Shown here: piece after piece, positions 5,153-61,362 of the stretch
How the letters are laid out: each line of letters opens with the position of its first letter
Position numbering within the stretch: the stretch's first letter is position 1
Assembly: GCF_024436435.1 (NCBI RefSeq)
Contig: NZ_JAFMZP010000001.1
Span: 992,001 to 1,056,000 of the forward strand
Reading direction: 5' to 3'
DNA length: 64,000 nt
From: Desertivirga xinjiangensis
Lineage (GTDB): Bacteria > Bacteroidota > Bacteroidia > Sphingobacteriales > Sphingobacteriaceae
Translations under genes and position numbers: made by a program
The notes under the pieces: model-generated
Database searches by the model: none
Seen by the model: only the letters and a program-made list of their open reading frames with translations
Told to the model about the DNA's origin: nothing

Positions 5153-6805
5153 ATGAAAATGAAAAACTTTATAAAAACCAGTTTGGCGGTTATATTGATG
5201 CTTTCTTTCAGTGGATGCGAACGTTTCCTGGAGGAAGACTTAAAATCAGAGCTGGCGCCAAGTAATACATTTACGAGTACTTACGGTTTTGAGGTAGGTA
5301 GCGCAGGGCTATATTCACTGTTGCGTTCAGAATATAACACTTATGGCGAAGGTGGTGCTTACATTCACAATGCTGCTTGTCCTTATGAAGCTTTACAAGT
5401 TGCCACAGATATTGCAGATGCGCCAGCAAGCGACGGCTCGCTGATCCCGTTCGCCAACCTGACAATGAATTCAGAAACCCGATTTGTGGGGACATTCTGG
5501 AACTGGGCTTATAGCCTTATCGCTTCCGCTAACGAAATTCTTGTTTTTTCAGAACAAAACACCAACTGGGATAATCCCACAGATAAGGCGCGTTTCCAGG
5601 CCGAGGCCCGGTTCTTTCGAGCATATGCTTATCGTACGCTAATCTATCTTTACGGCGATGTACCATATGTAGAGACGATTCTGTACGATTTTCAGCTAAA
5701 TTTCACTCGTACGCCCAAAGCTGAGGTATTAGGCCATATCGTAGAGGATTTGAAATTTGCTACAGAAAATCTTCCTGCCAACCCTGAACAGGTTCTGGAT
5801 GGAAAACTCACCAAATGGGCTGCATATCATTTATTGAGCGAAATGTACCTGCTGCAAAAAGAATATGTACTTGCAGAACAAGCTGCTTTAGCTGTCATTA
5901 ATAGTGGTTATTATGGGCTAATGAAAACACGCTTTGGCGTAAACAAAGATAAGCCAGGCGACGCTTTCAGTGACATGTTCCTGGAGAATAACCAAAACCG
6001 GAAGTCTGGTAACAGGGAAAGTATCTTTGTTTTGCAATTTCAGTTTAACACCGTTGGTGGAGGTACTAATTCTGACGATTGGACACGCCGGGCATGGAAC
6101 CCTAAATACCAAGATATTGGAGGCTTTGTTTTGGCAGATACTTTAGGTGGTCGCGGTTTGGCACAACTGGTCCCGATGAAATGGTGGGTTGGAACTGCCG
6201 GCACCAATGCGACAGGAAATATTCCTGGAATTTTTACCAATCCAGATATGCGGAACTCTAACTATAATATTAAGCGTAACTGGTATTATAATAATCCTGC
6301 AGAGACTGCTTTATTTGGTAAAAAAGTTAATATAACTGACCAAACATGGACGTCCACCAAATCTCTTTTTCCAGCTATCACAAAGTTTTTCTACGGACGT
6401 ACGGAAAACTTAGGCTTAACTGGAAGCTACAAAGACCGAATGAAATTCCGTTTGGCAGAGACGTACCTCTTGCTTGCTGAAGCTTATCTGGGACAGGGGC
6501 TTCCTGGAAAGGCAGCCGAGGCTGTCAATGAAGTACGTGGAAGAGCCGGAGCATCAACTGTAGATGCCAGTGTTATGACCATGGATTTCCTTCTTGATGA
6601 GCGTATCAGGGAAATGATAGGTGAAGAGACCCGCCGTTTTACATTGGTACGTACGGGTAAATATATAGAGCGGGTAAGAGCATATAACGATGCTATCAAG
6701 GGTATAGTTAAGGATGAACATGCATTATGGCCTATTCCTCAAGCTATCATTGATGCTAACCGTGATGCTGAATTCCCTCAGAATTTGGGATATGAAAAGC
6801 GGTAA
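5153..6805 (+). CDS. SusD/RagB-family surface glycan-binding lipoprotein
   Basis: The 550-residue product begins with a lipoprotein signal (LMLSFSGCERFLEE, Cys near residue 22). The helical TPR-like scaffold of SusD is recognisable, including the conserved AEARFFRAYAYRTLIYLYGD near residue 153 and the C-terminal FRLAETYLLLAEAYLGQG and ALWPIP blocks. SusD forms the lid on the SusC channel at the cell surface. It starts 11 bases after the susC stop, so the two are co-translated. Assignment is secure; ligand specificity is unknown. Confidence 0.95.
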   Translation: MKMKNFIKTSLAVILMLSFSGCERFLEEDLKSELAPSNTFTSTYGFEVGSAGLYSLLRSEYNTYGEGGAYIHNAACPYEALQVATDIADAPASDGSLIPFANLTMNSETRFVGTFWNWAYSLIASANEILVFSEQNTNWDNPTDKARFQAEARFFRAYAYRTLIYLYGDVPYVETILYDFQLNFTRTPKAEVLGHIVEDLKFATENLPANPEQVLDGKLTKWAAYHLLSEMYLLQKEYVLAEQAALAVINSGYYGLMKTRFGVNKDKPGDAFSDMFLENNQNRKSGNRESIFVLQFQFNTVGGGTNSDDWTRRAWNPKYQDIGGFVLADTLGGRGLAQLVPMKWWVGTAGTNATGNIPGIFTNPDMRNSNYNIKRNWYYNNPAETALFGKKVNITDQTWTSTKSLFPAITKFFYGRTENLGLTGSYKDRMKFRLAETYLLLAEAYLGQGLPGKAAEAVNEVRGRAGASTVDASVMTMDFLLDERIREMIGEETRRFTLVRTGKYIERVRAYNDAIKGIVKDEHALWPIPQAIIDANRDAEFPQNLGYEKR

Positions 6806-6848
6806 GCAGATCATCAGAGAATAATGATTTTTACTAAAGAATAACGTA

Positions 6849-11176: not shown

Positions 11177-14100
11177 ATGGGTCCTATGGGGGTACGCAAA
11201 TTCAATTTATTCCTTTTTTGCTTCTGCATTTCTATATTTCAAAGTGTTTTTGCGATTGATATTTCGCGTTACCGCTTTCATGTGATGCCTGAAACTTCTT
11301 ATTATGGAGGAATACAGAGTATCACCAAGGATAGCCTGGGTCGGATCTGGTATACCGGCCCTGACGCGGTGTTCATGTATGACGGGAATAGCTTTTATCA
11401 ATTGAACGAGCTGGTATCGGTAAGTCAACCCAAGTATAGATGGGCTTATGGTACATTAGTAACCGACAAAAAAGGGAGATTGTTTCTGGCGACTAACCAT
11501 GGCTTATTGAAGTTCAATTATGATCGTTTTTCATTTGACCTGATCGTTCCCGGAAAAATTCGTTCTGTGTCGCTGCATGATGATGACAGGTTGTATATGC
11601 TTTCGGAAGATACTATTTTATCGTACGATCAAAGCAGTAAAAAGTTGCGTGCTTTGCCTTTACCTAAAGAAAGGTTTTTCAGTAGCGTGATCAGTTTGAA
11701 GGGCAGTCTTTACCTTACACAAAACGGCTTTCTTTACAAATTAGATACGCAGAAACGCCTGTTAAAGCTTTTTTCGACTCTTGGAGGAGCAAAGAATCTT
11801 TTAATAGACGGTCTTGAATACAAAGGCTCTTATTATTATCTAACACAGCGGGGAGGAGTTTATGTAACGGATGGTAAAGGAAATGTTAGAAAACAGATCC
11901 CGGTAATAATTGCAGGAAATCAATCTGTTATGGCCAAAAAGATATTTATTGACCAGGCAGGTATCATATGGGTAGCTACGCAGATGGGTCTCTTTCTTTA
12001 TGATCCGCTTAAAGAAAGCAGCAGCTTTTTAAGAATGAACTTAAACGATGCGTTTTCCTTACCCAATAATTCAATATGGACAATTTACCGGGATCCGGAC
12101 CAGGGTGCCTGGATTGGGACCTATGGCGGTAAGATTGCATACTGTTCCCTGTACGATGCCCGGGTGCGTTACTTCAATCCGAGCCCCGGCGGACTTAATC
12201 ACCCGGTTGTAAGCAGTTTTCAGGAAGATCATTTAGGGAACATCTGGATCGGAACTGAGGGTGGGGGGCTCAACTATTGGAACAGGGCTACTGATTCTTT
12301 CAGCCATTTCATGAAGTCAAATGGGAATTCGCTGAACTCTAATATGATAAAGCGCCTGCGTTTTGACCCTGAAACAAAGAATTTGCTTATTTCAGGTTTT
12401 AATGGAGGGATCACCTCTTATGACATCATTAATAGAACGTTTAAGGACCTTAACTTTCAATCGGCCGAGACCGGAAGACCACTGACCATATATGAGTTCA
12501 TAAGGGAGAAACAGGGTACATGGTGGATGTCAGATCCTGACAGATCCTTCTTTTACAAAAGGAATAATCAAAGAGATATTGAGATCATCAAGGTTACCGG
12601 AACAGATAACAAACCATTAGATGTAGAAGTGGAAGCCTTGTATATCGATCAACAAAATAACCTTCGTCTGATCAGTCATCAGGGATTATTCATTGTCGAC
12701 CGCAATACTTTAAAAGTTTTGAAACACCATTTTATTAAAGATGGCCCTTTTTCGGCGAATCAGCTCTGTTGCTATTACGAAGCTTCGAACGGGGATCTAT
12801 GGGTAGGAACCTTGGGAAAGGGAGTAAATGTATTAAAGAAAGATGGCAGGTATCTCAATTTTAATGGCGGAAATGGCTTTCACCCCAAAATGGTGTTCGG
12901 TATCCTGGAGGATGATGTTTCGAAAAATATCTGGTTTAGCACCAGCGAGGGGCTCTACTACTATGACCACAAATTGCAGAAGTTCGAAAAAGCGAGATTT
13001 TACAGGGAGAACAGCTGCGGGTCCTTTTATATACGATCTGCTTATAAAACCAGGAAAGGAGAGATGCTTTTTGGCGGGACGAATGGATTTTTGCTTTTTG
13101 ACCCGGGATACCTGAATAAGAATCCGCAGAAACCAAGGGTGTTTTTCACTAATTTTTTGGTGAATAATACACCAGTAACAGCTAATACCAAAGATTCTCC
13201 TCTATCTAAAGATATCTCGAGTTTAACAAACCAGGAGGAAGAAAGAATAGAGCTTTCAGGCCAGCAATCCAACATAGAGATCAGGTTTTCATCAAACAGC
13301 TATTTGTCTGCAAATAAAAATCAATTTGCTTACCGGATGCTTGGGCTTAATAACAAATGGTTGCTGATCAACGCAAATCAGAATTCCGTTCAGTTTTTTA
13401 ATCTTCCCAGCGGTGATTATACGTTTGAAATAAAGGCATCCAATAACGATGGATTATGGGGGGATAAGATATCAAGACTTCATTTACACGTGGATCCGCC
13501 TTTTTTTCTTTCCTGGTGGGCTTATCTTTTTTATACCCTGGTTGCACTGGCTCTTTTGTTCTTTGTAATGAGATATTACACCAATAAAAGGATGTTTAAA
13601 GAGAGATTAGCTTTAGAAATATGGAAAGAGCAAAATATGCGCGAATTAAATCAGGCAAGAACGGATTTCTTTACGCATATTTCTCACGACTTGAAGACTC
13701 CCTTAACGCTGATCATCGAGCCGCTTAAACAACTTAAAGGGACTCTTGCGAATAATGATCATGCGGCAGGTTATATGCAGCTCATAGAGAAAAATGTAGC
13801 CCGTATTCAGCGTATGATAAGTCAATTGCTCCATTTCAGGGAAATAGAGAGTCAGAAAATTACTTTAAATCCGCAAGGAGGCGATTTGGTTAGTTTTGTT
13901 CAGGACCTTTTTGGATTGTTCGAACTATATGCGAACAAAAAGGAAATTGAAACCAATATTGCGTCCCATGAGGATCATGTATATGTGGCATTTGATTCTG
14001 ACGTCATCGAAAAGATCTTAACGAACCTGTTCTCTAATGCACTGAAATATACCCCGAATAAGGGTTATGTAGGTGTTCGTATATACGAATCCACCGAAGA

Positions 14101-52482: not shown

Positions 52483-53640
52483 TTAAATATTACTGTTAAT
52501 AAGCTCTATTAACCTTAGGCGATCCTTTGTCTTCATCGCCGGATACATTGGAAGATAGACCAGTTTTTCGAACTGTAGTTCATCAGAATGAATATCAGTT
52601 GTTGGCTTATTGCTTAATTTAACTAAACTCGAAGCTTTCGATGTCGCATCAAAGCCTTTCAATCTTAAAGTCTTAATTAACTTCTCAGGGTATGGAGCAT
52701 TAATTGGTAACACCCAAAACGTATGCTGAAGATTAGTATTCCCAACTTTAACTTGGTCTGGAAGATTATTAAGGATTTCAGATCCATATCCACTTCTTAG
52801 ATCTATAGATTCAGTCCTGAAATTCTTAATTTTTCTTTTAATCAATAAAATCAAGGGCAAAGAGGGTTTGATTCGAATTCTTTTAAATAGGTCTCCTTTC
52901 GGAAATCCTCTGGTAAAGCTAGATAAAACTTCATCGGGATCTTTTCCTCCAATCTTTATTAACTTATAGAATGCCGAGTAAAGAAACTTTGTACAAAGAA
53001 TTTTAATTACCAGAGCAACCAACAACTTTTTAATAAATATTTTTCTCTTCTGTATGGGATATGAGTTTTGAAGAGATAGAGCCTCTTTATAATGCTGCTG
53101 ATCCTTAATTATTAATATTGCCCCTCCTAATGCCGTGTTAGTTTTTATCATTCCAAAACTAAACATGACCACATCAGATAGTTTATTTCCCTGGTAGCTT
53201 CCTGTAAATGCTTGTGCACAGTCTTCAATAATAAACAATCCTTTCTGTTTTGCTATTTCAGCGAGTGAGGATATCTCTGAAATGCTACCAAACAAATGGG
53301 TAAAGATTACCGCCCTTGTTGAAGTATTGATACTGGCTTTAAAGCTCTCACTACTAATGGATAGGTTGTGCTTATTAACAGCTAGCGGTATAGCAACAAG
53401 TTTATGCGCCTTAATAATCTCAAACATTCCTGGAATGTTAATGTCGGCAATTAAGACTTCGCTTTCTGCGGGTAATTTTAACGTCTTAAGAACCAAATCA
53501 AAACCACTCCGAACTGAAAGACAGCATAAAGAATTAGGCCAGGCAAACTGCATAGGATAGTTTTGCGATAATGAGCAACTGTAATATAGCCCCGCAAAAA
53601 GATCCCGATAATGTATATCCAATCTACCTCTGGGAATCAT
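52483..53640 (-). CDS. DegT/DnrJ/EryC1/StrS-family PLP-dependent aminotransferase
   Basis: The 385-residue product has the fold-type I layout of sugar aminotransferases. IIEDCAQAFTGSYQGNK (PLP-phosphate and Asp region) and MFSFGMIKTNTALGGAIL with the likely PLP-binding Lys near residue 167 are seen, and LPMYPAM near the end. Family members aminate nucleotide-linked keto sugars, but some are non-catalytic or act on other carbonyls. The GEGG usually after the Lys is replaced by ALGG. It overlaps the WYL regulator stop by 4 bases (ATGA), so the two are translationally coupled. Confidence 0.82.
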   Translation of the reverse strand: MIPRGRLDIHYRDLFAGLYYSCSLSQNYPMQFAWPNSLCCLSVRSGFDLVLKTLKLPAESEVLIADINIPGMFEIIKAHKLVAIPLAVNKHNLSISSESFKASINTSTRAVIFTHLFGSISEISSLAEIAKQKGLFIIEDCAQAFTGSYQGNKLSDVVMFSFGMIKTNTALGGAILIIKDQQHYKEALSLQNSYPIQKRKIFIKKLLVALVIKILCTKFLYSAFYKLIKIGGKDPDEVLSSFTRGFPKGDLFKRIRIKPSLPLILLIKRKIKNFRTESIDLRSGYGSEILNNLPDQVKVGNTNLQHTFWVLPINAPYPEKLIKTLRLKGFDATSKASSLVKLSNKPTTDIHSDELQFEKLVYLPMYPAMKTKDRLRLIELINSNI

Positions 53641-54701
53641 TCACTCTCGCTTTCTGGTTCATATTCCTTTTTTTCAACTCCACTTCCTAAGTCATAACAC
53701 TCCAACGCCTTTTTTAAATTTTCTCGTATTCGCTTTACCAAGATTCGTGGTCCCAATACTCTTAGCTTACAGCCAAATCCCAATAGTTCCCTTTCCAGCT
53801 CAAAATTTATAATTACTCTGATGCTAAAGATCTTTCCCTCGGCATTTTCTGATAATATTTTCTGTGTATGGTGTAAGGGTTTTGTGATTACGTATGGAGC
53901 GTTTTCGTGATCAACCCTAAATACAACCTCACAATCTTTCTGGTTGGGAGATTTCGTTACTCCAAGTACGTCAGAATAATAAGTACTTAGGTCTACTAAT
54001 GTATTCTCAATGTAGTGTTCTTTTGCAGCTTCTTCTACAGCAACTATCCGATCAAGGGCCATAGTTAACAGGGGCTTGTTTTTCTGATGCGATAGGCATA
54101 GTACAAACCACCGGTTTCTATATTCTTTAAGTAAATAAGGACTTATACAAAATGTACTTGCTTGCCTTGCCTTAAAGGATTGATAGGTGATGCAGAGTAC
54201 TGTCTTTGAAATTATAGCTTTTCTGATGATCTCTATAAACTCAAGGCCTTTTAGATTGTCATTCTTTTCAAAATCAATTACTGAGGGGCTATGTGTTTTC
54301 TGTACATAGATCTTATCTTCTATCTTGCTCACCATTTCATTTACATCAGAAAAATGATTGAAGCCTTTAAACTGCTTCAGCAGATCTGCAACTTCAGTAA
54401 GAACCTGCATGTCCTGATTGGTAAGAGGAATATTAGTGATGCTGTAATTCTTGTCCGAATACGTGTAATATTTCTTATCCATCACAATTATCGGAGCTTC
54501 GTAACCCAGTTTATTACTGCGCATCATTTTGAGATCCGCCTGCACAGTACGCCTGCTTACACCTTTATCAATACCTTCATATTCATATAGAGCATCAGAA
54601 CAGGCCTCGATAAGGTCCTCTAAAGTCCATTTTTTATATCTGTTTTTTAAGCAGTTATCAATAGTCCGGTAACGGATAAGGGCGTTGCGGTTGACAGGCA
54701 T
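53637..54701 (-). CDS. WYL-domain transcriptional regulator, divergent from rtcB
   Basis: The 354-residue product has an N-terminal DNA-binding helix-turn-helix (about residues 10-75, GVSRRTVQADLKMM), a WYL domain near 165-235 (ISKTVLCITYQSFKARQAST; YLLKEYRNRWFVLCLSHQ), and a C-terminal extension (RVIINFELERELLGFGCKLR). WYL domains are thought to bind nucleic acids or nucleotides and control stress or defence genes. It is transcribed away from rtcB across a 97-base gap that holds the element shared with the TROVE gene. In Enterobacteria RtcR has this place; here the WYL protein probably does. Confidence 0.9.
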   Translation of the reverse strand: MPVNRNALIRYRTIDNCLKNRYKKWTLEDLIEACSDALYEYEGIDKGVSRRTVQADLKMMRSNKLGYEAPIIVMDKKYYTYSDKNYSITNIPLTNQDMQVLTEVADLLKQFKGFNHFSDVNEMVSKIEDKIYVQKTHSPSVIDFEKNDNLKGLEFIEIIRKAIISKTVLCITYQSFKARQASTFCISPYLLKEYRNRWFVLCLSHQKNKPLLTMALDRIVAVEEAAKEHYIENTLVDLSTYYSDVLGVTKSPNQKDCEVVFRVDHENAPYVITKPLHHTQKILSENAEGKIFSIRVIINFELERELLGFGCKLRVLGPRILVKRIRENLKKALECYDLGSGVEKKEYEPESESE

Positions 54702-54758: not shown

Positions 54759-54798
54759 GGAGCAGAATTTCTTTGTGTCATTAAATATTAAAACAATC

Positions 54799-56253
54799 AT
54801 GGAAAAAGAGAAGGTCAGCAACAATGAATTGAAAGCATTAGGTATTAACGATGTGGAGATTCTGGTAAGCTTTAGTCGTGTAGCAAATGGTTTATTAAAA
54901 CATGCTGTAATGTCTAAACAGGATATTCTGGCTAATATGGAAGCCCTGATCGATGACCCGATGCCCTATGCTTTAAAGAAAGGCGGAAAGTTTAAGAATC
55001 TTGCCGAAAGCATTATTGCCTTACGTAAAGAAGGCAAGTTTTTAAAGCAACAACGAACAAATTTTAAACTGAAAGAGGAGATAGCAGACTTCCCGGTTTG
55101 GGGATTTGAACATATTGAGGTAGGTGCCTTAGCGCAAATGCGAACAGCAATCCAATTACCTATCGCGGTGGCAGGTGCATTAATGCCCGATGCGCATCAG
55201 GGTTATGGTTTGCCTATCGGCGGAGTGTTGGCCACTACGGCAAATACCATTATTCCTTTTGCAGTTGGAGTTGATATTGCCTGCAGGATGTGTTTAAGCA
55301 TCTTTGACCTTCCGGCAGAAACTATTGACAACGAAAACGATATGCTTAAAAATATATTGGTTGATAATACCTATTTCGGAATGGGGTGTACCACCAAATC
55401 CTATTTTGACAGTTCATTGTTCGATAGCAAAACATGGAGCGAAACTAAAGTCATCCGCTCTTTAAAGGATAAAGCTTATGCACAATTAGGAACCAGCGGA
55501 ACCGGTAACCACTTTGTAGAATGGGGCGAATTAAGTATTGCAGATGGTGCTTTAGCAGGAATTCCAGCAGGCAGGTATTTAGTCCTGTTATCTCACTCTG
55601 GTTCTCGTGGGTTTGGGGGGAGCGTGGCTGATCACTACAGCAAAATTGCCATGACTAAAACCAAGCTTCCTGCCGAAGCTAAACACTTAGCTTGGCTAGA
55701 CCTGGATAAAGATGAAGGACAAGAATACTGGATTGCCATGAACCTTGCCGGCGACTACGCAAGTGCAAACCACCATGAAATCCATAACAAAATTGCCCGT
55801 GCTCTAAATCATACACCATTAATGGTCATTGAGAATCACCACAACTTTGCCTGGAAAGAACAACTGGCAGACGGTACAGAAGTAATAGTTCACCGTAAAG
55901 GTGCAACTCCGGCCGGTGAAGGTGTGCTGGGTATCATCCCAGGATCGATGAGTACACCAGGTTTTGTTGTCCGTGGTAAAGGGGATGCGGCAAGTATTAA
56001 TTCTGCAAGCCACGGTGCAGGCAGGTTGATGAGCAGAAGTGCTGCTTTTAAAACTTTAGACAAATCTGTTATTGCAGCGAACCTAGTTGATAAGCGTATC
56101 ACCCTGATGGGAAGCGATATGGATGAAGCACCGATGGCTTACAAGGATATTCATGCGGTAATGGCTGCTCAGGAAAATTTAGTGGAGGTATTGGCAAAGT
56201 TTGAACCGAGGATTGTGAGAATGGCAGACCCGAGGGAAAAGCCGGAAGATTGA
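54799..56253 (+). CDS. rtcB: RtcB-family RNA ligase
   Basis: ATG 54799 gives 484 residues; a GTG at 54775 falls in the promoter region. RtcB joins 2',3'-cyclic phosphate or 3'-phosphate RNA ends to 5'-OH ends with GTP and Mn. Visible are PDAHQGYGLPIGGVLAT, FAVGVDIACRM (metal Asp and Cys), GTSGTGNHFVEWG, NHHNF, HRKGATPAGEGV and SASHGAGRLMSR, whose His (near residue 406) is guanylylated. The CRM replaces the more usual GCGM. It is flanked by a WYL regulator and, further on, by the TROVE gene and Y-like RNAs, as in known RNA-repair operons. Confidence 0.95.
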   Translation: MEKEKVSNNELKALGINDVEILVSFSRVANGLLKHAVMSKQDILANMEALIDDPMPYALKKGGKFKNLAESIIALRKEGKFLKQQRTNFKLKEEIADFPVWGFEHIEVGALAQMRTAIQLPIAVAGALMPDAHQGYGLPIGGVLATTANTIIPFAVGVDIACRMCLSIFDLPAETIDNENDMLKNILVDNTYFGMGCTTKSYFDSSLFDSKTWSETKVIRSLKDKAYAQLGTSGTGNHFVEWGELSIADGALAGIPAGRYLVLLSHSGSRGFGGSVADHYSKIAMTKTKLPAEAKHLAWLDLDKDEGQEYWIAMNLAGDYASANHHEIHNKIARALNHTPLMVIENHHNFAWKEQLADGTEVIVHRKGATPAGEGVLGIIPGSMSTPGFVVRGKGDAASINSASHGAGRLMSRSAAFKTLDKSVIAANLVDKRITLMGSDMDEAPMAYKDIHAVMAAQENLVEVLAKFEPRIVRMADPREKPED

Positions 56254-56371: not shown

Positions 56372-56923
56372 TTATCTTTTATCTTCTGATAATTCTAGCA
56401 TTGCTCTGGCTACACTGGCAGTGGTCACATCATAGTCTTCATGTCCATATCCATGTTTTTCATTCAATTGATAGAACTCACGGTATATATCAAATGCATT
56501 CTGAGAACTTGCAACCCAATCGACAATAATATCCAAGATTTCGTTCATTACAGGCTGGTAGGTCATTCTTCCATCTGATTTACGGATACCATTGTTGTCT
56601 GATTTTTTCTTGCCAAGATTTAAGAAAATATTCTTTTCGTCATAGATAATATCTCTTACTTCTTTAAACTCTCTACCTTTAGGCAAGTAGTTCATCAGTA
56701 GTCTTCTAATCCCTTGATAATATATGTTATATTTTTCTTCCGGATTTTCAAATTCTTTACCAATTAGCTGCTTTAATTCATCAATCTCTTCCAAATTACC
56801 TGTTTGAGAATTAATGGAAAGCTGCTTTCCTACTTTTTCATTTGCCTTTTGTAAAAGTTCCATTCTTTCACGATCGGCCTCAGATAGTCCCTCCTGCTTT
56901 TTTATTTCTTTATCTTCTTTCAT
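56372..56923 (-). CDS. Small charged protein, partner of the HTH-ImmA gene
   Basis: The 183-residue cytosolic product is rich in Lys and Glu, with a probable coiled N-terminus (KEDKEIKKQEGLSEADRERM). I do not recognise it. It begins 9 bases after the stop of the HTH-ImmA gene, so the two are one operon. It may be the partner (toxin, antitoxin or protease target) in a two-gene module. The module lies between rtcB and the TROVE gene, on the opposite strand to both. Confidence 0.75.
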   Translation of the reverse strand: MKEDKEIKKQEGLSEADRERMELLQKANEKVGKQLSINSQTGNLEEIDELKQLIGKEFENPEEKYNIYYQGIRRLLMNYLPKGREFKEVRDIIYDEKNIFLNLGKKKSDNNGIRKSDGRMTYQPVMNEILDIIVDWVASSQNAFDIYREFYQLNEKHGYGHEDYDVTTASVARAMLELSEDKR

Positions 56924-56932
56924 ATTTAATAA

Positions 56933-58126
56933 TTATTTGATCTCTAAAATTGTCTTGATCTTTTCGCTAGCTTCCTTAATACTAGCGTCATGCCAACTAA
57001 TAGGATTTAACTTTTTGATTGCATCTTGATAACTAGGATAAAACTCCCTGCCTAACGCATGATAGTTTTTCCCGTAAAGGTTCTCTTGATACCAGGCATT
57101 AAAAGAATAGACCATCGAGCGGTGTACTTCGTTCTCTTTTGCAAATTTGGAAACGATAAAGGCATTGCTAATGTATTTCTTAATAAACTGAAATTTCTCT
57201 ACGGGCATAAAAAAATCTCTTGCAAATGCATCAGCCTTCTCTTCAATCAGAAACAGGTCAGTATCGCCTGTTAAATGAAAGTTATTTGTTGCTATTGTAT
57301 CAAAGTCAAACAAAACATGATGTAGTTCATGCAGGAGAGTGAACCATAAAGTGGGATATTTCTTATTGAAATCAGTAATAACAATACAAGGCTTATTATT
57401 GATTATAAACGTTGCTCCCCGTACTTGTGTCGTGGAAAGGTAATCTTGAAATATTACGGTAACTCCAATGTTATAAAGCGCCTTACATACCGTAAAAAGA
57501 CCGTTGTTTTCGTCCTGCGAGTAAGGTTTGATCTTTACAATAATTTCTTTAAGGCGCACCCTATCATACTCGTTTGGATTATTGATTATTCTAAAAGTTT
57601 GATATGCAGACTTAACCCAAAAATCTTTCATCTTTTCAGAAAAATTTCTTTTGGTACGACTATAAAGAGGTTGCTCTAATTCTTGTTCAAAGTCTTGGAT
57701 GCTTTCATAGCCGAAAAAGTCAAGTACCCTTTTAACAAGATTGTCTGTATCATCATCAGTGTCAAAAAATCCTAGTGCAGTAAGCGTTTTAACATCAAAG
57801 TTTCTTAAAAGAAATGCAGTCTTTCTTGCACTATCAATTGATGCTATGTTTTCCTCGCTTTGGTTTTTTAGCACAACAGAAATTAGTTTGCTAATCTCAA
57901 TACCCAGGAATTCAGCAATCTTTACAACATGGATAAGGTTAGGCTGTTTAGCTGTTCCGGTTATTATCTGCTCGAAAACATCTTTATCGATCTTCAGTAA
58001 TTTTAATGCCTTGGTCTTTGTTAGATTATATTCAAAAAGCTTTTCTTCAAATGCAGCCTTTAAATCAATGTCAGTTTGTTTATTGAAAATTTCATTAAGT
58101 AATTTGTTTACATCAAATCTTTCCAT
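56933..58126 (-). CDS. HTH plus ImmA/IrrE-type zinc peptidase protein
   Basis: The 397-residue product has a Xre-like helix-turn-helix (about residues 30-75, LTKTKALKLLKIDKDVFEQI) and an ImmA/IrrE metallopeptidase domain with the zinc motif WFTLLHELHHVLFDF (near residue 264) and downstream Glu in EEKADAFARDFFMP. Such proteins cleave repressors or act in toxin-antitoxin pairs (for example RosmerTA-like modules). It is the first gene of an operon with the 183-residue gene. Two GGGTAATTACCC-type palindromes flank its promoter, indicating autorepression. Confidence 0.88.
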   Translation of the reverse strand: MERFDVNKLLNEIFNKQTDIDLKAAFEEKLFEYNLTKTKALKLLKIDKDVFEQIITGTAKQPNLIHVVKIAEFLGIEISKLISVVLKNQSEENIASIDSARKTAFLLRNFDVKTLTALGFFDTDDDTDNLVKRVLDFFGYESIQDFEQELEQPLYSRTKRNFSEKMKDFWVKSAYQTFRIINNPNEYDRVRLKEIIVKIKPYSQDENNGLFTVCKALYNIGVTVIFQDYLSTTQVRGATFIINNKPCIVITDFNKKYPTLWFTLLHELHHVLFDFDTIATNNFHLTGDTDLFLIEEKADAFARDFFMPVEKFQFIKKYISNAFIVSKFAKENEVHRSMVYSFNAWYQENLYGKNYHALGREFYPSYQDAIKKLNPISWHDASIKEASEKIKTILEIK

Positions 58127-58418: not shown

Positions 58419-59999
58419 ATGAAATTCAACCTGTTAAGCAAATTCAAAAATCAGACCGTTAACTACGAAGGAGCAAAAGCATTTATGCTAAGTCCCGAAA
58501 TGGAGTTATATACCGCCGTAGTAACCTGGAGCTTAAACGATTCCTTTTATGAGAAAAACCAGGAGCGCTTAAACCGTTTGCAGATATTAGTAGCAGCTTG
58601 CGATCCAATATTTGTAGCTAAACTGGCAGTATATGCCCGTACTAAAATGTATATGCGTTCAGTCCCACTGGTATTAGTAACCGAACTGGCTAAACAGCAC
58701 TCTGGCGATGATTTGGTTGCTCGGGCTACAAAAGGCGTGGTTAACCGTGCAGACGAGATCACGGAGTTATTGGCTTGCTATGAGTTGTTGAATGAACGAA
58801 CCGGCACTAAAAAGCTGAATCGCTTATCCAAGCAATTGCAAAAAGGTTTATCAGCAAGCTTTAATCGTTTCGACGAGTACCAGTTTGCCAAATACAACCG
58901 GGATGGTCAAATTAAATTACGTGATGCGTTGTTCCTGGTTCACCCACAGGCGAAAGATAATGCACAGCAGGAGCTGTTTAACAAAATAGCGAAAGGCACT
59001 TTGCAAACACCTTATACCTGGGAAACTGAGTTGTCGGCATTAGGCCAGCTGAATTACGATAGCGATGAAGCCAAAGCTGTGGCATTTCGTGCCAAGTGGG
59101 AAGAGCTGATTGATAGCGGCAAGTTGGGTTACATGGCGTTATTGCGGAATCTGCGGAACATACAGGAAGCAGGCGTGAGCTATGCACATTTTGAAAAGAT
59201 ATGTGCTCGTTTAGCTGATGCGGATGAAGTTGCTAAAGCAAAGCAGTTTCCCTTCCGTTATTTAGCGGCTTACCGCGAACTGTTGTTGACAGCTGACGAA
59301 TCACTAGTAAGAGGTTTAACCAGAAAATTTAGCGCCTTTTTATCGGGAAACAAAGGTTATACCGGCAGTTTGTTAGATGCATTGGAGAAAGCAGTACAGG
59401 CAAGTGCCGTTAACATACAAGGTTTCGGTTACGAAACACGTGTACTATTGGCTTGCGACGTTTCCGGCTCTATGCAAACACCTGTTTCGGCAAAATCGAA
59501 AGTGTTATTATACGATGTAGGTTTGATGCTGGCTATGCTGTTACAAAGCCGGTGCAAAAATGTAGAGGTGGGTATGTTTGGCGATACCTGGAAAACTATC
59601 ACGGTGCCTCGTAACAACATTTTAAATAACGTTCAGGAGTTTTATCGCCGCGAAGGTGAGGTTGGGTATGCTACTAACGGCCATCTGGTAATACAAGATC
59701 TCTTATCCCGAAGGGTAAAAATGGATAAGGTGTTTTTGTTTACTGATATGCAATTGTATAATAGCAAAGGCAGTGGTTCTGCAAGCATCCAGTTTTACTG
59801 GGACCGTTACAAGCGGGAGGTTGCACCAAATGCAAAGTTATACCTGTTCGACTTAAAAGGTTACGGACAAGCACCATTGCAAGTAATGCGCAACGATGTG
59901 TTTCTGGTAGCTGGCTGGAGCGATAAAGTTTTCGTTGTTTTAGCTGCACTGGAAAACGGAGGTTCAGCATTGGATGCTATCAACAACATAGAGTTATAA
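58419..59999 (+). CDS. rsr: TROVE-domain Ro60-like protein (Rsr)
   Basis: The 526-residue product has the two-part Ro architecture: an N-terminal ring of helical repeats (about residues 20-330, AKAFMLSPEMELYTAVVTWS; VLVTELAKQHSGDDLVARA) and a C-terminal von Willebrand A domain with a MIDAS site ACDVSGSMQTP (near residue 344) and FTDMQLYNS. In bacteria Ro-like proteins bind Y RNAs on the ring and team with nucleases such as PNPase in RNA decay and stress response. The four Y-like RNAs starting 46 bases after the stop are its probable ligands. It shares a control element with rtcB. Confidence 0.93.
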   Translation: MKFNLLSKFKNQTVNYEGAKAFMLSPEMELYTAVVTWSLNDSFYEKNQERLNRLQILVAACDPIFVAKLAVYARTKMYMRSVPLVLVTELAKQHSGDDLVARATKGVVNRADEITELLACYELLNERTGTKKLNRLSKQLQKGLSASFNRFDEYQFAKYNRDGQIKLRDALFLVHPQAKDNAQQELFNKIAKGTLQTPYTWETELSALGQLNYDSDEAKAVAFRAKWEELIDSGKLGYMALLRNLRNIQEAGVSYAHFEKICARLADADEVAKAKQFPFRYLAAYRELLLTADESLVRGLTRKFSAFLSGNKGYTGSLLDALEKAVQASAVNIQGFGYETRVLLACDVSGSMQTPVSAKSKVLLYDVGLMLAMLLQSRCKNVEVGMFGDTWKTITVPRNNILNNVQEFYRREGEVGYATNGHLVIQDLLSRRVKMDKVFLFTDMQLYNSKGSGSASIQFYWDRYKREVAPNAKLYLFDLKGYGQAPLQVMRNDVFLVAGWSDKVFVVLAALENGGSALDAINNIEL

Positions 60000-60002
60000 A
60001 TA

Positions 60003-60027
60003 GTACGGGGATGCTAATGCCCCATAC
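60003..60027 (+). other. Small hairpin between the TROVE gene and the RNA array
   Basis: GTAcGGGG at 60003-60010 pairs with CCCCaTAC at 60020-60027 with one mismatch. It directly follows the stop codon and is not followed by a T-run, so it may be a processing or stability element. Confidence 0.4.
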
Positions 60028-60045
60028 TTTAAAAGATATTTAAAA

Positions 60046-60172
60046 AATAAGGATGCCGTAGAAACGGGTTACTTCGCTGCATGAAGGGGGAGGGCAGTGT
60101 GATGCAAATCATGCTGAGGGTTCGAGTCCCTATAGCGAGCCCCCGTCCCGCGTTCGCCTGTTGCTCCTTATT
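60046..60172 (+). ncRNA. Y-like RNA 1, with tRNA-like module
   Basis: AATAAGGA-U-GC at the 5' end pairs with GC-UCCUUAUU at the 3' end, leaving one bulged U. The signature TGCCGT-10-TACTTCG lies at 60054-60076. Inside are a 9-bp helix capped by a GCAA tetraloop (60095-60116), a T-arm AGGG-TTCGAGT-CCCT (60117-60131) and a GGGGG/CCCCC helix (60086-60090 with 60140-60144) that closes both. This makes a tRNA-like three-way junction without a D-arm. About 127 nt. Confidence 0.8.
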
Positions 60173-60175
60173 ATA

Positions 60176-60259
60176 AAGAAGGTGCCGTTAATAAGCCTTA
60201 CTTCGTCCAAAGAATCATTACCGGTCAATGCCGGTGGCTTGTTACTTTTCGCCCTTCTT
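60176..60259 (+). ncRNA. Y-like RNA 2, minimal form without T-loop
   Basis: AAGAAGG-U-GC pairs with GC-CCUUCUU, again with a bulged U. The signature TGCCGT-10-TACTTCG lies at 60183-60205. An inner helix (GTTAATAAGCC with GGCTTGTTAC, one bulge and one wobble) encloses a simple hairpin ACCGG/CCGGT at 60220-60235. There is no tRNA-like T-loop, so it resembles a bare Y module. About 84 nt. It starts 3 bases after RNA 1. Confidence 0.78.
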
Positions 60260-60274
60260 AAAAGAAATTGATAT

Positions 60275-60420
60275 AAGAGGTGTCGTAAATGAGTGTTACT
60301 TCGCAGTTAACGTCCAGGTCGCCGGTTCGAGTCCGGCCATTGGCTTCGGTCAATGTAGCTCAGTTGGTCAGAGCAGGAAACACCGAAAGGTGTGTTTCAC
60401 TTGTTGATTTTTACCCTTTT
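60275..60420 (+). ncRNA. Y-like RNA 3, with circularly permuted tRNA-like body
   Basis: AAGAGG-U-G pairs with C-CCUUUU (one G-U pair), with a bulged U. The signature is TGTCGT-10-TACTTCG at 60281-60303, and an inner helix ATGAGTG/CACTTGT follows. Between the arms are, in order: variable loop AGGTC, T-arm GCCGG-TTCGAGT-CCGGC, a 7-bp acceptor helix sealed by TTCG, then TA and D-arm GCTC-AGTTGGTCA-GAGC with A26, and a GAAA-capped hairpin. The anticodon arm is replaced by the Y stem. About 146 nt. Confidence 0.88.
60316..60375 (+). other. Permuted tRNA-like domain inside Y-like RNA 3
   Basis: In tRNA numbering the order is 44-48, 49-65 (T-arm), 3' acceptor strand, TTCG tetraloop, 5' acceptor strand, 8-9 (TA), 10-25 (D-arm), 26 (A). 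Acceptor CATTGGC (60338-60344) pairs with GTCAATG (60349-60355), 7 bp with one wobble. It is not a functional tRNA: it has no free CCA end and no anticodon. Confidence 0.88.
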
Positions 60421-60428
60421 AATAAGAT

Positions 60429-60529
60429 AATGAGAGATGCCGTAAGTGTGTGATACTTCGTTGGTGAAACCGTGTAAGCGGGCGGTTCGAATCCTGTAAG
60501 ACACACACACTAGCTATTGCTCTTTCATT
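60429..60529 (+). ncRNA. Y-like RNA 4, with partial T-loop
   Basis: AATGAGAGA-U-GC pairs with GC-UCUUUCAUU over 11 bp, with the same bulged U. The signature TGCCGT-10-TACTTCG lies at 60438-60460. An inner helix GTGTGTG pairs with CACACAC. The loop holds CCG/CGG and GG-TTCGAAT-CC at 60484-60494, a T-loop match on a short stem. About 101 nt. It starts 8 bases after RNA 3. Confidence 0.78.
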
Positions 60530-60579: not shown

Positions 60580-61362
60580 CTACTCCATGTTCATTATTTC
60601 GTTAATGAAAAGAGGATTTATTCTTGGCTGGATGATTCTTTTGAAAACCCCCTCATTATTTGCAATACACTCCCAATTGAAATCTTTTCCAGAGCTCAGC
60701 AATTCGTCAGACCAAGGTAGAGTAGTTGATTTAGATAAGCTGCTCCAATCCCAGGGATGATCAATAAATTCACTCAATAATTCCTCAGACCAGACCACAG
60801 AATCGTTATAAGACAGATGTTTAAAGCTTAAATATTGTGAAAACTTCCGAACTATCGAAATGTCTTTTTTTAGGCCGTAATTTGAGTTGAAATATCCCCA
60901 GAAATCCTTATTGTTCTCGATGATGCTTGTTTTTTCTGACAGCAGCTCCTCTGTCCAGGGAAAGGAAGGGTTAGAAGCTATTCCCATTAGTCCAACATAA
61001 ACAGTATTGTAGGAGTAATATGTCCGGAAGAAATACTCAGATAGTGAGGTTCTTAATATTGCCCGCCAGTCAATGTTAGTATTAGTGGAAAGAAATTTCC
61101 ATGCGATCTTATCGTTAAACTCTGTGAGAATCTCTAAAGTTTTCCACTTCCCGTCGGCACGTGCTATGCAACCCCAGCCGTTGTCATAATTTAGGGTCCT
61201 TTGATTTAGCCAATCGGAAAGAACATTCAACATGTTTTTAGTCCAACAAACACCGGGATTGTTAATTAATCTTTCTTTGTCAATTTTTTGTATATATCTG
61301 TCGATGAGGTGTTCATCCCAGCACATTGCTATGTTTTTAGATAAGGCATTAAGCGTCCGCAA
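60580..61362 (-). CDS. Trp-rich repeat protein of unknown function
   Basis: The 260-residue cytosolic product has imperfect repeats of about 25-50 residues, each with a W-[ST]-[DE]-E-L-L-S core: FPWTEELLSEK, VVWSEELLSEF, LPWSDELLSSG, linked by W-x-W-x-x-L or W-x-x-I units (HPWDWSSLSK; FNWECIAN). I do not know a function for this repeat. The start TTG 61362 is uncertain; ATG 61326 is an alternative. It is convergent with the Y-like RNA array and ends 50 bases after it. Confidence 0.65.
   Translation of the reverse strand: MRTLNALSKNIAMCWDEHLIDRYIQKIDKERLINNPGVCWTKNMLNVLSDWLNQRTLNYDNGWGCIARADGKWKTLEILTEFNDKIAWKFLSTNTNIDWRAILRTSLSEYFFRTYYSYNTVYVGLMGIASNPSFPWTEELLSEKTSIIENNKDFWGYFNSNYGLKKDISIVRKFSQYLSFKHLSYNDSVVWSEELLSEFIDHPWDWSSLSKSTTLPWSDELLSSGKDFNWECIANNEGVFKRIIQPRINPLFINEIMNME

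What the first reader, a model, noticed from the sequence alone, without database searches (positions are those of the whole stretch)
60046..60529. Tandem array of four Y-like RNAs directly behind a TROVE (Ro60/Rsr) gene
Seen: four elements of 127, 84, 146 and 101 bases, separated by only 3, 15 and 8 bases. Each is closed by a 5'/3' helix with one bulged U at the same place, and each has TGYCGT, exactly 10 bases, TACTTCG. Four independent helices with different sequence but the same bulge and signature are strong evidence of selection for structure. Known: bacterial Ro proteins bind Y RNAs, often encoded nearby, some with tRNA-like modules (YrlA type). A tight array of four diverse Y-like RNAs in a Bacteroidota rtcB locus is, to my knowledge, not described. 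Inference: they are cut from one precursor and give the Ro ring several different adaptors.
Basis: partly seen in the sequence, partly recalled or inferred. Interest (0 to 1): 0.96.

Follow-up and report, generated by a model that had tools for sequence, protein, structure and literature searches.

The report
Y RNA array beside Ro gene
Directly behind a bacterial gene for the Ro ring protein lie four small RNA genes that share one docking stem but carry different heads, several of them imitating parts of a transfer RNA; similar batteries stand next to the same gene in many other bacteria, which suggests that one ring works with a set of exchangeable adaptors.

Summary
Four elements lie 46 nt behind a TROVE (Ro60/Rsr) gene. 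A covariance model built only from relatives finds all four (E 1e-13 to 7e-10). The stem is under strong selection: in 49 short relatives 94% of cells pair against 67% after shuffling, with changes on both sides at 16 of 17 pairs. Arrays are general: 20 of 20 family genomes with near-full-length TROVE carry them; none of 181 others shows a cluster. Of 80 named TROVE loci, 76 have 1-8 elements downstream. Two of five plasmid loci read, both Proteobacteria, have arrays. The stem is constant and heads exchange. Element 3 is YrlA-type, a tRNA fold opened at the anticodon. Element 1 belongs to a class tied to the Deinococcus Y RNA. A class in 18 of 80 named loci, not in the window, is a tRNA fold opened in the D loop. 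Best reading: Y RNA genes giving one Ro ring several adaptors. Binding, transcription and processing are inferred. Two Y RNAs per locus were known (Salmonella); the key Y RNA papers were not available.

The parts
58419..59999 (+). TROVE (Ro60/Rsr) protein, 526 aa, with Ro60-type vWA domain and DxSxS metal-site motif (D347, S349, S351 invariant in the 10 aligned sequences)
   Evidence: Pfam PF05731 108.2 bits, PF25045 30.1 bits; alignment A1; PDB matches 9l5y/9kop E 6.5e-29 and 60-kDa Ro 1yvp E 1.6e-5. The name of the metal-site motif is recalled.
60002..60028 (+). hairpin between the TROVE stop and the array (AGTA-C-GGGG / CCCC-A-TACT), terminator- or attenuator-like; hairpins of other sequence are common at this place in relatives
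   Evidence: fold and relatives; of 55 named loci with an interval of 15-130 nt, 38 fold into a continuous hairpin of 6 pairs or more (no shuffle control). Role not tested.
60046..60172 (+). Y RNA 1, Deinococcus-type class C: constant stem; module with G-rich/C-rich closing helix, long hairpin and T arm (GGGTTCGAGTCCC)
   Evidence: class by R2, which was built with this element among 23, and by the bridge through L089 to RF01053
60176..60259 (+). Y RNA 2, short: constant stem, simple hairpin module, no T arm
   Evidence: 60.7 bits
60274..60421 (+). Y RNA 3, YrlA-type: T arm, closed acceptor, U8-A9, D arm in that order (tRNA fold opened at the anticodon), plus one further hairpin
   Evidence: Rfam YrlA 39.1 bits E 4.3e-7, below the gathering score of 69; architecture test; stem
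60429..60529 (+). Y RNA 4, class B by eye and by its relatives: hairpin followed by a T-loop motif (GGTTCGAATCC) with an imperfect T stem; last in the array
   Evidence: the automatic classifier left it as 'N'
54775..56253 (+). RtcB RNA ligase, 492 aa, part of the neighbourhood
   Evidence: PF01139 285.2 bits; found in 14 of 19 family loci (11-16.6 kb) and 37 of 80 named loci (up to 10.6 kb)
53637..54701 (-). WYL/WCX-domain regulator divergent from rtcB, 354 aa
   Evidence: found in 14 of 19 family loci and 36 of 80 named loci

Best explanation
This is a tandem array of four Y RNA genes that serve the TROVE/Rsr ring protein encoded just upstream. Each RNA has the same docking stem: helix P1, one bulged U, a GY/RC pair, CGU opposite an internal loop, helix P2, then UACUUCG. 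Shown: the stem is conserved by compensatory change, the arrays stay beside TROVE genes across the Bacteroidota examined and in two Proteobacteria, and the module on top of a nearly unchanged stem can be replaced. Inferred: the stem binds the outside of the ring, and each module is an adaptor or gate that ties the ring to a different partner. Class C is the likely counterpart of the Deinococcus Y RNA, reported to tether PNPase. Class D is the YrlA type. The others have unknown partners, probably proteins that read tRNA arms. Also inferred: the RNAs come from one transcript and are separated afterwards; changing their mix would change what the ring does under RNA damage, in line with the rtcB neighbourhood.
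For: Motif 4 against 0 expected. R1, without window sequence, finds all four. Stem covariation: 313 distinct elements, P1 90% and P2 89% of pairs standard, against 62% when 3' strands are swapped among all elements, 70% within a locus, and 43-64% (P1) or 41-51% (P2) when slid; the 3' strand had been placed by best pairing, so the fairer control is re-optimised shuffling: score 36 or more in 278 of 377 real and 0 of 1885 shuffles. 49 short elements: 94.4% against 67.0%, covariation score 0.771 against 0.257, slides at most 0.175. Linkage: 20 of 20 genomes with near-full-length TROVE have core motifs around it; with a stricter pattern 18 of 20 have two or more and 2 have one, all at the TROVE locus, and 0 of the other 181 have a cluster. 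76 of 80 named loci have downstream elements, 367 in all, against 6 upstream and 4 on the other strand. Homology to characterised Y RNAs: YrlA E 4.3e-7; L089 matches RF01053 over its full length and class-C model R2 at 71 bits. Modules differ on near-identical stems. Literature: Salmonella rsr-yrlB-yrlA-rtcB-rtcA is one operon and Rsr and YrlA bind PNPase (PMC9879122, passages); Y RNA tethers Rsr to PNPase in D. radiodurans (PMC4726728, passages).
Against: No expression, processing or binding data. No partner was identified for any module. A hairpin between TROVE and the first element could stop transcription, so the array may have its own promoter. No match in the 14 loci scanned at gathering reaches Rfam's YrlA score. 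Module classes were assigned by heuristic motif rules; 92 of 377 elements fell into unclear groups (T?, d?, N). Many loci are close relatives, so counts of elements are not counts of independent events, and the G-handle and named sets overlap in part. 4 of 80 named loci have no downstream motif element. The exchange count mixes true exchanges with insertions inside one module type.
Confidence: 0.72

Rival explanations
1. Y RNAs, but redundant: the copies only raise the dose of one gate on the ring, and the modules are largely neutral or merely stabilise the RNA.
For: Short elements with almost no module are common (77 of 377) and a Pseudomonas plasmid has six short ones; some modules have lost the tRNA sequence signature while keeping the stem (for example L109_7).
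Against: Modules keep tRNA architecture: YrlA topology in 104 of 380 distinct modules and compensated D-stem changes in the D-loop-opened class. The same class often sits at the same array position across species.
Confidence: 0.15
2. A decoy battery: the tRNA-like modules occupy a tRNA-cutting, tRNA-modifying or RNA-repair enzyme during damage, with TROVE only protecting the RNAs.
For: rtcB nearby; three of four window elements carry a T-loop motif; PMC7790460 (passages) suggests that the YrlA module could be a competitive inhibitor of an anticodon nuclease.
Against: The YrlA type lacks an anticodon loop because it is opened there, and the D-loop-opened class has a shortened anticodon arm. PMC7790460 states that YrlA is not a substrate of that nuclease, which does not exclude inhibition. 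Short elements carry no tRNA part.
Confidence: 0.08
3. Not separate RNAs: a structured 3' UTR or leader that tunes TROVE or rtcB mRNA.
For: It sits 46 nt after the TROVE stop, and in several Flavobacterium loci between TROVE and rtcB (positions); gaps are short (213 of 298 at most 20 nt, 9 of them negative, that is overlapping).
Against: Each element closes on itself with its own helix and shares the docking core of Y RNAs. Elements can stand upstream of TROVE (L152, L180; L041) and one array is split by about 2 kb (L028).
Confidence: 0.04
4. Mobile repeats that happen to collect at this locus.
For: Downstream copy number varies from 1 to 8 where present and one genome has a split array (L028).
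Against: No copy found elsewhere in the genome. No clusters in 181 genomes lacking near-full-length TROVE. Sequences differ strongly while structure is kept.
Confidence: 0.01

Closest known systems
YrlA (Rfam RF02553), bacterial Y RNA of Salmonella and others
   Same: Docking stem plus tRNA-like module in the order T arm, closed acceptor, D arm; next to rsr and rtcB. Element 3 matches at E 4.3e-7. By eye, 5' UGC...UAC and 3' U-(U/C)-GC are shared between the element consensus and the YrlA consensus.
   Different: Below Rfam's gathering score; the stem has a bulged U and UACUUCG; it is one of four different elements in an array.
Deinococcus radiodurans Y RNA (Rfam RF01053)
   Same: Class C topology: closing G/C helix, hairpin, T arm. 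L089 matches RF01053 over the full length (41.6 bits, E 7e-6, below its gathering score of 80) and class-C model R2 (71.2 bits).
   Different: Window element 1 itself gave no RF01053 hit at E up to 10. In Bacteroidota this type stands beside YrlA-type elements in the same array.
Salmonella rsr-yrlB-yrlA-rtcB-rtcA operon
   Same: Ro protein, more than one Y RNA and RtcB in one operon (PMC9879122, passages).
   Different: Two Y RNAs there, four here and up to 8 downstream motif elements in relatives; RtcR/sigma-54 control there, a WYL regulator beside rtcB here.
Vertebrate Y RNAs
   Same: Ro60 site is a seven-pair helix with one bulged nucleotide and a three-nucleotide bulge opposite (PMC4726728, passages); here a 7-9 pair helix with one bulged U.
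   Different: Bulged C in vertebrates; the same paper describes bacterial Y RNAs as not homologous with the vertebrate clades.

Membership tests
Bacterial Y RNA | 5'/3' closing helix with conserved docking core, kept by compensatory change | tested here: met
Bacterial Y RNA | Encoded next to a Ro60/Rsr (TROVE) gene | tested here: met
Bacterial Y RNA | Homology to an established Y RNA family | tested here: met
   Element 3 to YrlA E 4.3e-7. Class C, with element 1, through L089 to RF01053. Elements 2 and 4 only through the shared stem.
Bacterial Y RNA | Binds Rsr and is stabilised by it | not testable with these tools
   needs pull-down or deletion
YrlA (RF02553) | Score at or above Rfam's gathering cut-off of 69 bits | tested here: not met
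   39.1 bits for element 3, no YrlA match for elements 1, 2 and 4; whole window 0 hits at gathering. So not filed as an Rfam YrlA member.
YrlA (RF02553) | T arm, closed acceptor, D arm order (tRNA opened at the anticodon) | tested here: met
   Element 3 only. Elements 1, 2 and 4 do not have it.
Deinococcus Y RNA (RF01053) | Match of element 1 to the family model | tested here: not met
   no hit at E up to 10
Deinococcus Y RNA (RF01053) | Shared class-C architecture through an intermediate | tested here: met
   L089 6709-6836 matches RF01053 and R2 at 6710-6832; R2 includes element 1 among its 23 sequences
Ro60/Rsr protein | TROVE domain plus Ro60-type vWA domain | tested here: met
   relation to solved Ro60 1yvp
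RYPER (Ro-Y RNA-PNPase machine) | Y RNA ties the ring to PNPase | not testable with these tools
   described in passages of PMC8394870, PMC8058203 and PMC4726728; no interaction test here

The most novel reading that the evidence does not exclude
Bacterial Ro rings commonly work with a battery of tandem, swappable RNA adaptors rather than with one or two Y RNAs. Adaptor evolution repeatedly grafts a tRNA fold onto one docking stem at different points: opened at the anticodon (YrlA type) and, seen here in 18 of 80 named loci, opened in the D loop with the acceptor closed. Each adaptor would recruit a different tRNA-reading enzyme or nuclease to the ring.
Probability: 0.5. Interest if true: 0.85.

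Novelty: new variant of a known kind. Interest (0 to 1): 0.72.

Why it matters
Y RNA function in bacteria rests on few examples (Deinococcus, Salmonella and Mycobacterium are the ones named in the passages seen). An array that places Deinococcus-type, YrlA-type, short and other modules on the same stem beside one ring gene turns the open question 'what does the module do?' into a controlled experiment: same ring, same stem, different module. The D-loop-opened class would be a second way to build a tRNA mimic by circular permutation. The stem model also finds Y RNAs that lie below Rfam's cut-off.

Tried and rejected
Rfam at gathering thresholds finds nothing in the window and no YrlA in the 14 of 80 named loci scanned; it is too strict for this group. 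ARAGORN finds no tRNA in the window. Single-sequence MFE folding is only weakly significant and folds element 1 otherwise than the comparative stem. In the phage csAssE-Sib region I looked only at annotation. Terminator and promoter scans were inconclusive: 10 terminator-like sites against 2.1 expected, 4 of them inside the array; 2 promoter-like sites against 5.9 expected. The sigma-70 consensus is in any case not the usual Bacteroidota type (recalled).

Rejected: tRNA gene cluster, since the order of arms and the closed acceptors exclude normal tRNAs; mobile repeats, because of linkage to TROVE; a feature of Bacteroidota alone, because of the Rhizobium and Pseudomonas arrays. I did not predict a structure of the TROVE protein.

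Rows dropped: one search used only elements with a 10-base N10, score at least 28, complete flanks, and one copy of identical rows (313 of 377). Model R1 used 49 of 67 eligible short elements; R2 used 23 of 57 class-C-like elements. The 18 extra elements (variant cores) are not in the 377. Eight of the 377 score below 28 and are kept in the totals. Only 5 of 80 plasmid records with a TROVE match were read.

Full report
WHAT IS THERE. The window (58419-59999, +) encodes a 526-aa TROVE/Ro60-type protein (PF05731 108.2 bits). The ten aligned sequences keep the DxSxS residues D347, S349 and S351; the profile reaches solved TROVE proteins 9l5y/9kop (E 6.5e-29) and the 60-kDa Ro protein 1yvp (E 1.6e-5). 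Upstream lie rtcB (54775-56253) and a divergent WYL-domain regulator. Behind the TROVE stop, after a small hairpin, come four elements. The pattern TGYCGT-N10-TACTTCG occurs exactly four times in 64 kb, against 0 expected, and with N9-12 nowhere else in the 5.5-Mb genome. Allowing 3 mismatches adds 22 matches, near chance (26 against 18.6 expected). Element ends found by a helix search are 60046-60172, 60176-60259, 60274-60421 and 60429-60529, with gaps of 3, 14 and 7 nt.

ANATOMY. Each element has helix P1 (7-9 pairs in the window), one bulged U, a GY/RC pair, CGU facing an internal loop, a second helix P2 whose 5' strand is the N10, the conserved UACUUCG, a variable module, P2', about 7 nt, and P1'. 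P2 of element 1 is imperfect. Against 500 shuffles of the downstream DNA the pairing scores of the four elements are reached by 1, 0, 0 and 0 shuffles.

RELATIVES. In 201 genomes of the family (the window's own included), 23 match the TROVE protein: 20 over nearly its full length, 3 as fragments. All 20 carry two to eight core motifs around the gene, mostly directly downstream; the strict motif is absent from the 3 fragment loci. A stricter pattern over the same 201 handles matches 30 genomes: the 20 with near-full-length TROVE, where the matches lie at the TROVE locus (two or more in 18, one in 2: G175 and G181), and 10 others with one or two isolated matches (12 in all); no cluster in those 181. 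The named genome collection gave 80 TROVE loci, the best 80 of a capped list, mainly Mucilaginibacter, Flavobacterium, Pontibacter, Dyadobacter and Pedobacter. Downstream element counts: none 4, one 3, two 2, three 12, four 12, five 21, six 14, seven 9, eight 3; 367 downstream, 6 upstream, 4 core matches on the opposite strand. Of the four with none downstream, L143 ends inside the gene, L152 has four and L180 one upstream, and L156 has a sub-threshold YrlA match behind the gene (39.6 bits); L180 also has an R1 match just behind the gene. Variant cores (for example TACATC) add 18 elements; the same rule on the first 1500 nt of the reverse strand of 78 loci gave 1.

SELECTION FOR STRUCTURE. Over 377 elements (373 named plus 4 in the window) the pairing score averages 39.5 against 21.2 for shuffles in which the 3' strand was searched anew; 36 or more is reached by 278 of 377 and 0 of 1885. 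In 313 distinct fixed-geometry rows P1 is 90% and P2 89% paired, with two to six standard pair types per position. Swapping 3' strands lowers this to 62%, and to 70% within a locus; sliding gives 43-64% (P1) and 41-51% (P2). On alignment A2 (49 short elements) 94.4% of cells pair against 67.0% shuffled, 16 of 17 pairs change on both sides (shuffles 13.3 on average, 4 of 500 reach 16), and the covariation score is 0.771 against 0.257 shuffled and at most 0.175 for slid versions. Model R1 from A2 finds all four window elements. These sequences are related, so shuffle counts are not probabilities; slid controls and the swap within loci guard in part against that.

MODULES. Rule-based classes among 377 elements: short 77; YrlA-like 104; class C 53; hairpin plus T arm 47; D-loop-opened 4; other with T arm 40; D arm only 13; none of these 39 (the 8 below score 28 included). 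A strict architecture test (T arm, at once a closed acceptor of 3 pairs or more, U8, then a D arm of 3-4 pairs with GG in its loop) is passed by 104 of 380 distinct modules; among them positions 8-9 are UA in 96, the D stem has four pairs in 91, and an anticodon-stem remnant of 3 pairs or more is found in 66. Window element 3 passes it and matches YrlA at E 4.3e-7. A class not in the window was picked out by inspection of the list, in 18 of 80 named loci: the module begins with the 3' half of the D arm, then a short anticodon arm, a variable loop such as AGGCC or AGGAC, T arm, closed acceptor, U8-A9 (once U-G), and ends with the 5' half of the D arm. The parser found the T arm in 17 of 18; in those 17 the D stem has 3-4 pairs, with types GAGC/GCTC, GAAC/GTTC, GAC/GTC and others. 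The acceptor has 6 unbroken pairs in 6 of these 17; in the other 11 it is interrupted after 0-1 pairs by the parser's rule. I read this as a tRNA fold opened in the D loop, a different circular permutation from YrlA.

LINK TO KNOWN Y RNAS. Locus L089, from another class of the phylum, has an element that matches the Deinococcus Y RNA model over its full length (RF01053, 41.6 bits, E 7e-6, below its gathering score of 80) and the class-C model R2 (71.2 bits). Class C, with window element 1, is therefore the likely counterpart of the Deinococcus Y RNA, although element 1 itself gave no RF01053 match. R1 and R2 together show three to five elements each in L089, L090, L091, L094, L095 and L096, all of one family (f24), besides one weak R2 match (L094:7352-7500, E 0.21); the motif alone had found one or none there. 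No element was reported by R1 or R2 in L097-L101.

OUTSIDE BACTEROIDOTA. Of 80 plasmid records with a TROVE match I read five loci. A Rhizobium etli plasmid has five tandem elements, each with its own P1 helix; three match YrlA (98.4, 57.5 and 33.0 bits, one above gathering). A Pseudomonas plasmid has six short ones, without a YrlA match (in one search three of nine pattern hits for Pseudomonas are overlapping duplicates without a helix, and one of the six helices is only 4 pairs). Two Deinococcus plasmids have one YrlA-like match each, one with a further weak R1 match (E 0.021); a Halobaculum plasmid showed none. Arrays are thus not confined to Bacteroidota; how common they are elsewhere is not known from this sample.

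MODULARITY. Among pairs of elements from different loci with at least 86% identical stems, 472 have similar modules, 120 different and 242 intermediate; for example L103_2 (75-nt YrlA type) and L112_2 (44 nt, no T arm) with 98% identical stems. Some of the 120 are insertions within one module type (L106_3) rather than exchanges, and pairs are not independent.

CONTEXT. rtcB is found in 14 of 19 family loci (11-16.6 kb), 16 of 26 further phylum loci and 37 of 80 named loci (10.6 kb at most); the WYL regulator in 14, 11 and 36. Short flanks make these lower bounds. Between TROVE stop and first element a hairpin of changing sequence is common: 38 of 55 named loci with an interval of 15-130 nt (21 of 76 loci had other intervals), without a shuffle control. 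Transcription from TROVE into the array may therefore be attenuated. Of 298 gaps between elements, 213 are 20 nt or less, 9 of these negative; median 10.

LITERATURE. Read as passages: PMC7790460, PMC8394870, PMC8058203, PMC4726728, PMC9569102, PMC7765460, PMC9879122. [quoted passage not shown] YrlA with a tRNA-like domain modified by DusA and TruB; Rsr-Y RNA-PNPase; the vertebrate Ro60 site with one bulged C. Ten searches showed no description of tandem Y RNA arrays in the titles and abstract openings listed (only the top rows of each were seen), but Chen 2014, Sim and Wolin 2018, Burroughs and Aravind 2016, Wang 2018 and Wolin 2013 are not held. A claim of first description cannot be made.

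VERDICT. The finding is real and larger than reported. My own estimate is about 0.93 that these are Y RNAs, and 0.72 for the explanation as a whole, which rests on homology for two module types and on inference for the rest.

Noticed in passing
window 56372-58126 (-): A 397-aa protein with an M78 (IrrE/ImmA-type) peptidase domain and a 183-aa partner without Pfam match lie between rtcB and TROVE; neither gave a tblastn match (E up to 1e-5) in any of 125 related TROVE loci, so they look like an insertion special to this genome.
   Followed up: partly
L175:6366-6487: A tRNA-like gene (52.9 bits) sits inside a Y RNA array and carries an insert of roughly 49 nt (estimated by eye) in its anticodon loop.
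   Followed up: partly
L106:6554-6729: A YrlA-type element (L106_3) whose module is 44 nt longer than that of relatives with an identical stem; the extra DNA appears to lie in the T loop.
   Followed up: no
L307:852-2887: Seven tRNA-model matches lie within about 2.2 kb upstream of a TROVE gene on a Halobaculum roseum plasmid.
   Followed up: no
L183:3633-5602 (phage csAssE-Sib): A gut phage has a gene annotated 'Ro sixty-related protein' right behind tRNA-Tyr and tRNA-Lys; 98 phage records match the TROVE protein.
   Followed up: no
L028, motifs at 12068 and 14120 of the reverse strand: The Y RNA array is split: about 2 kb lie between the core motifs of its fourth and fifth elements.
   Followed up: no
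L167:6375-6446 (-): A BTncRNA_FopS small RNA match (80.3 bits) lies on the opposite strand about 90 nt behind a Y RNA element.
   Followed up: no
window 60580-61362 (-): A 260-aa protein directly behind the array has no Pfam match and no tblastn match in the 125 loci searched.
   Followed up: no
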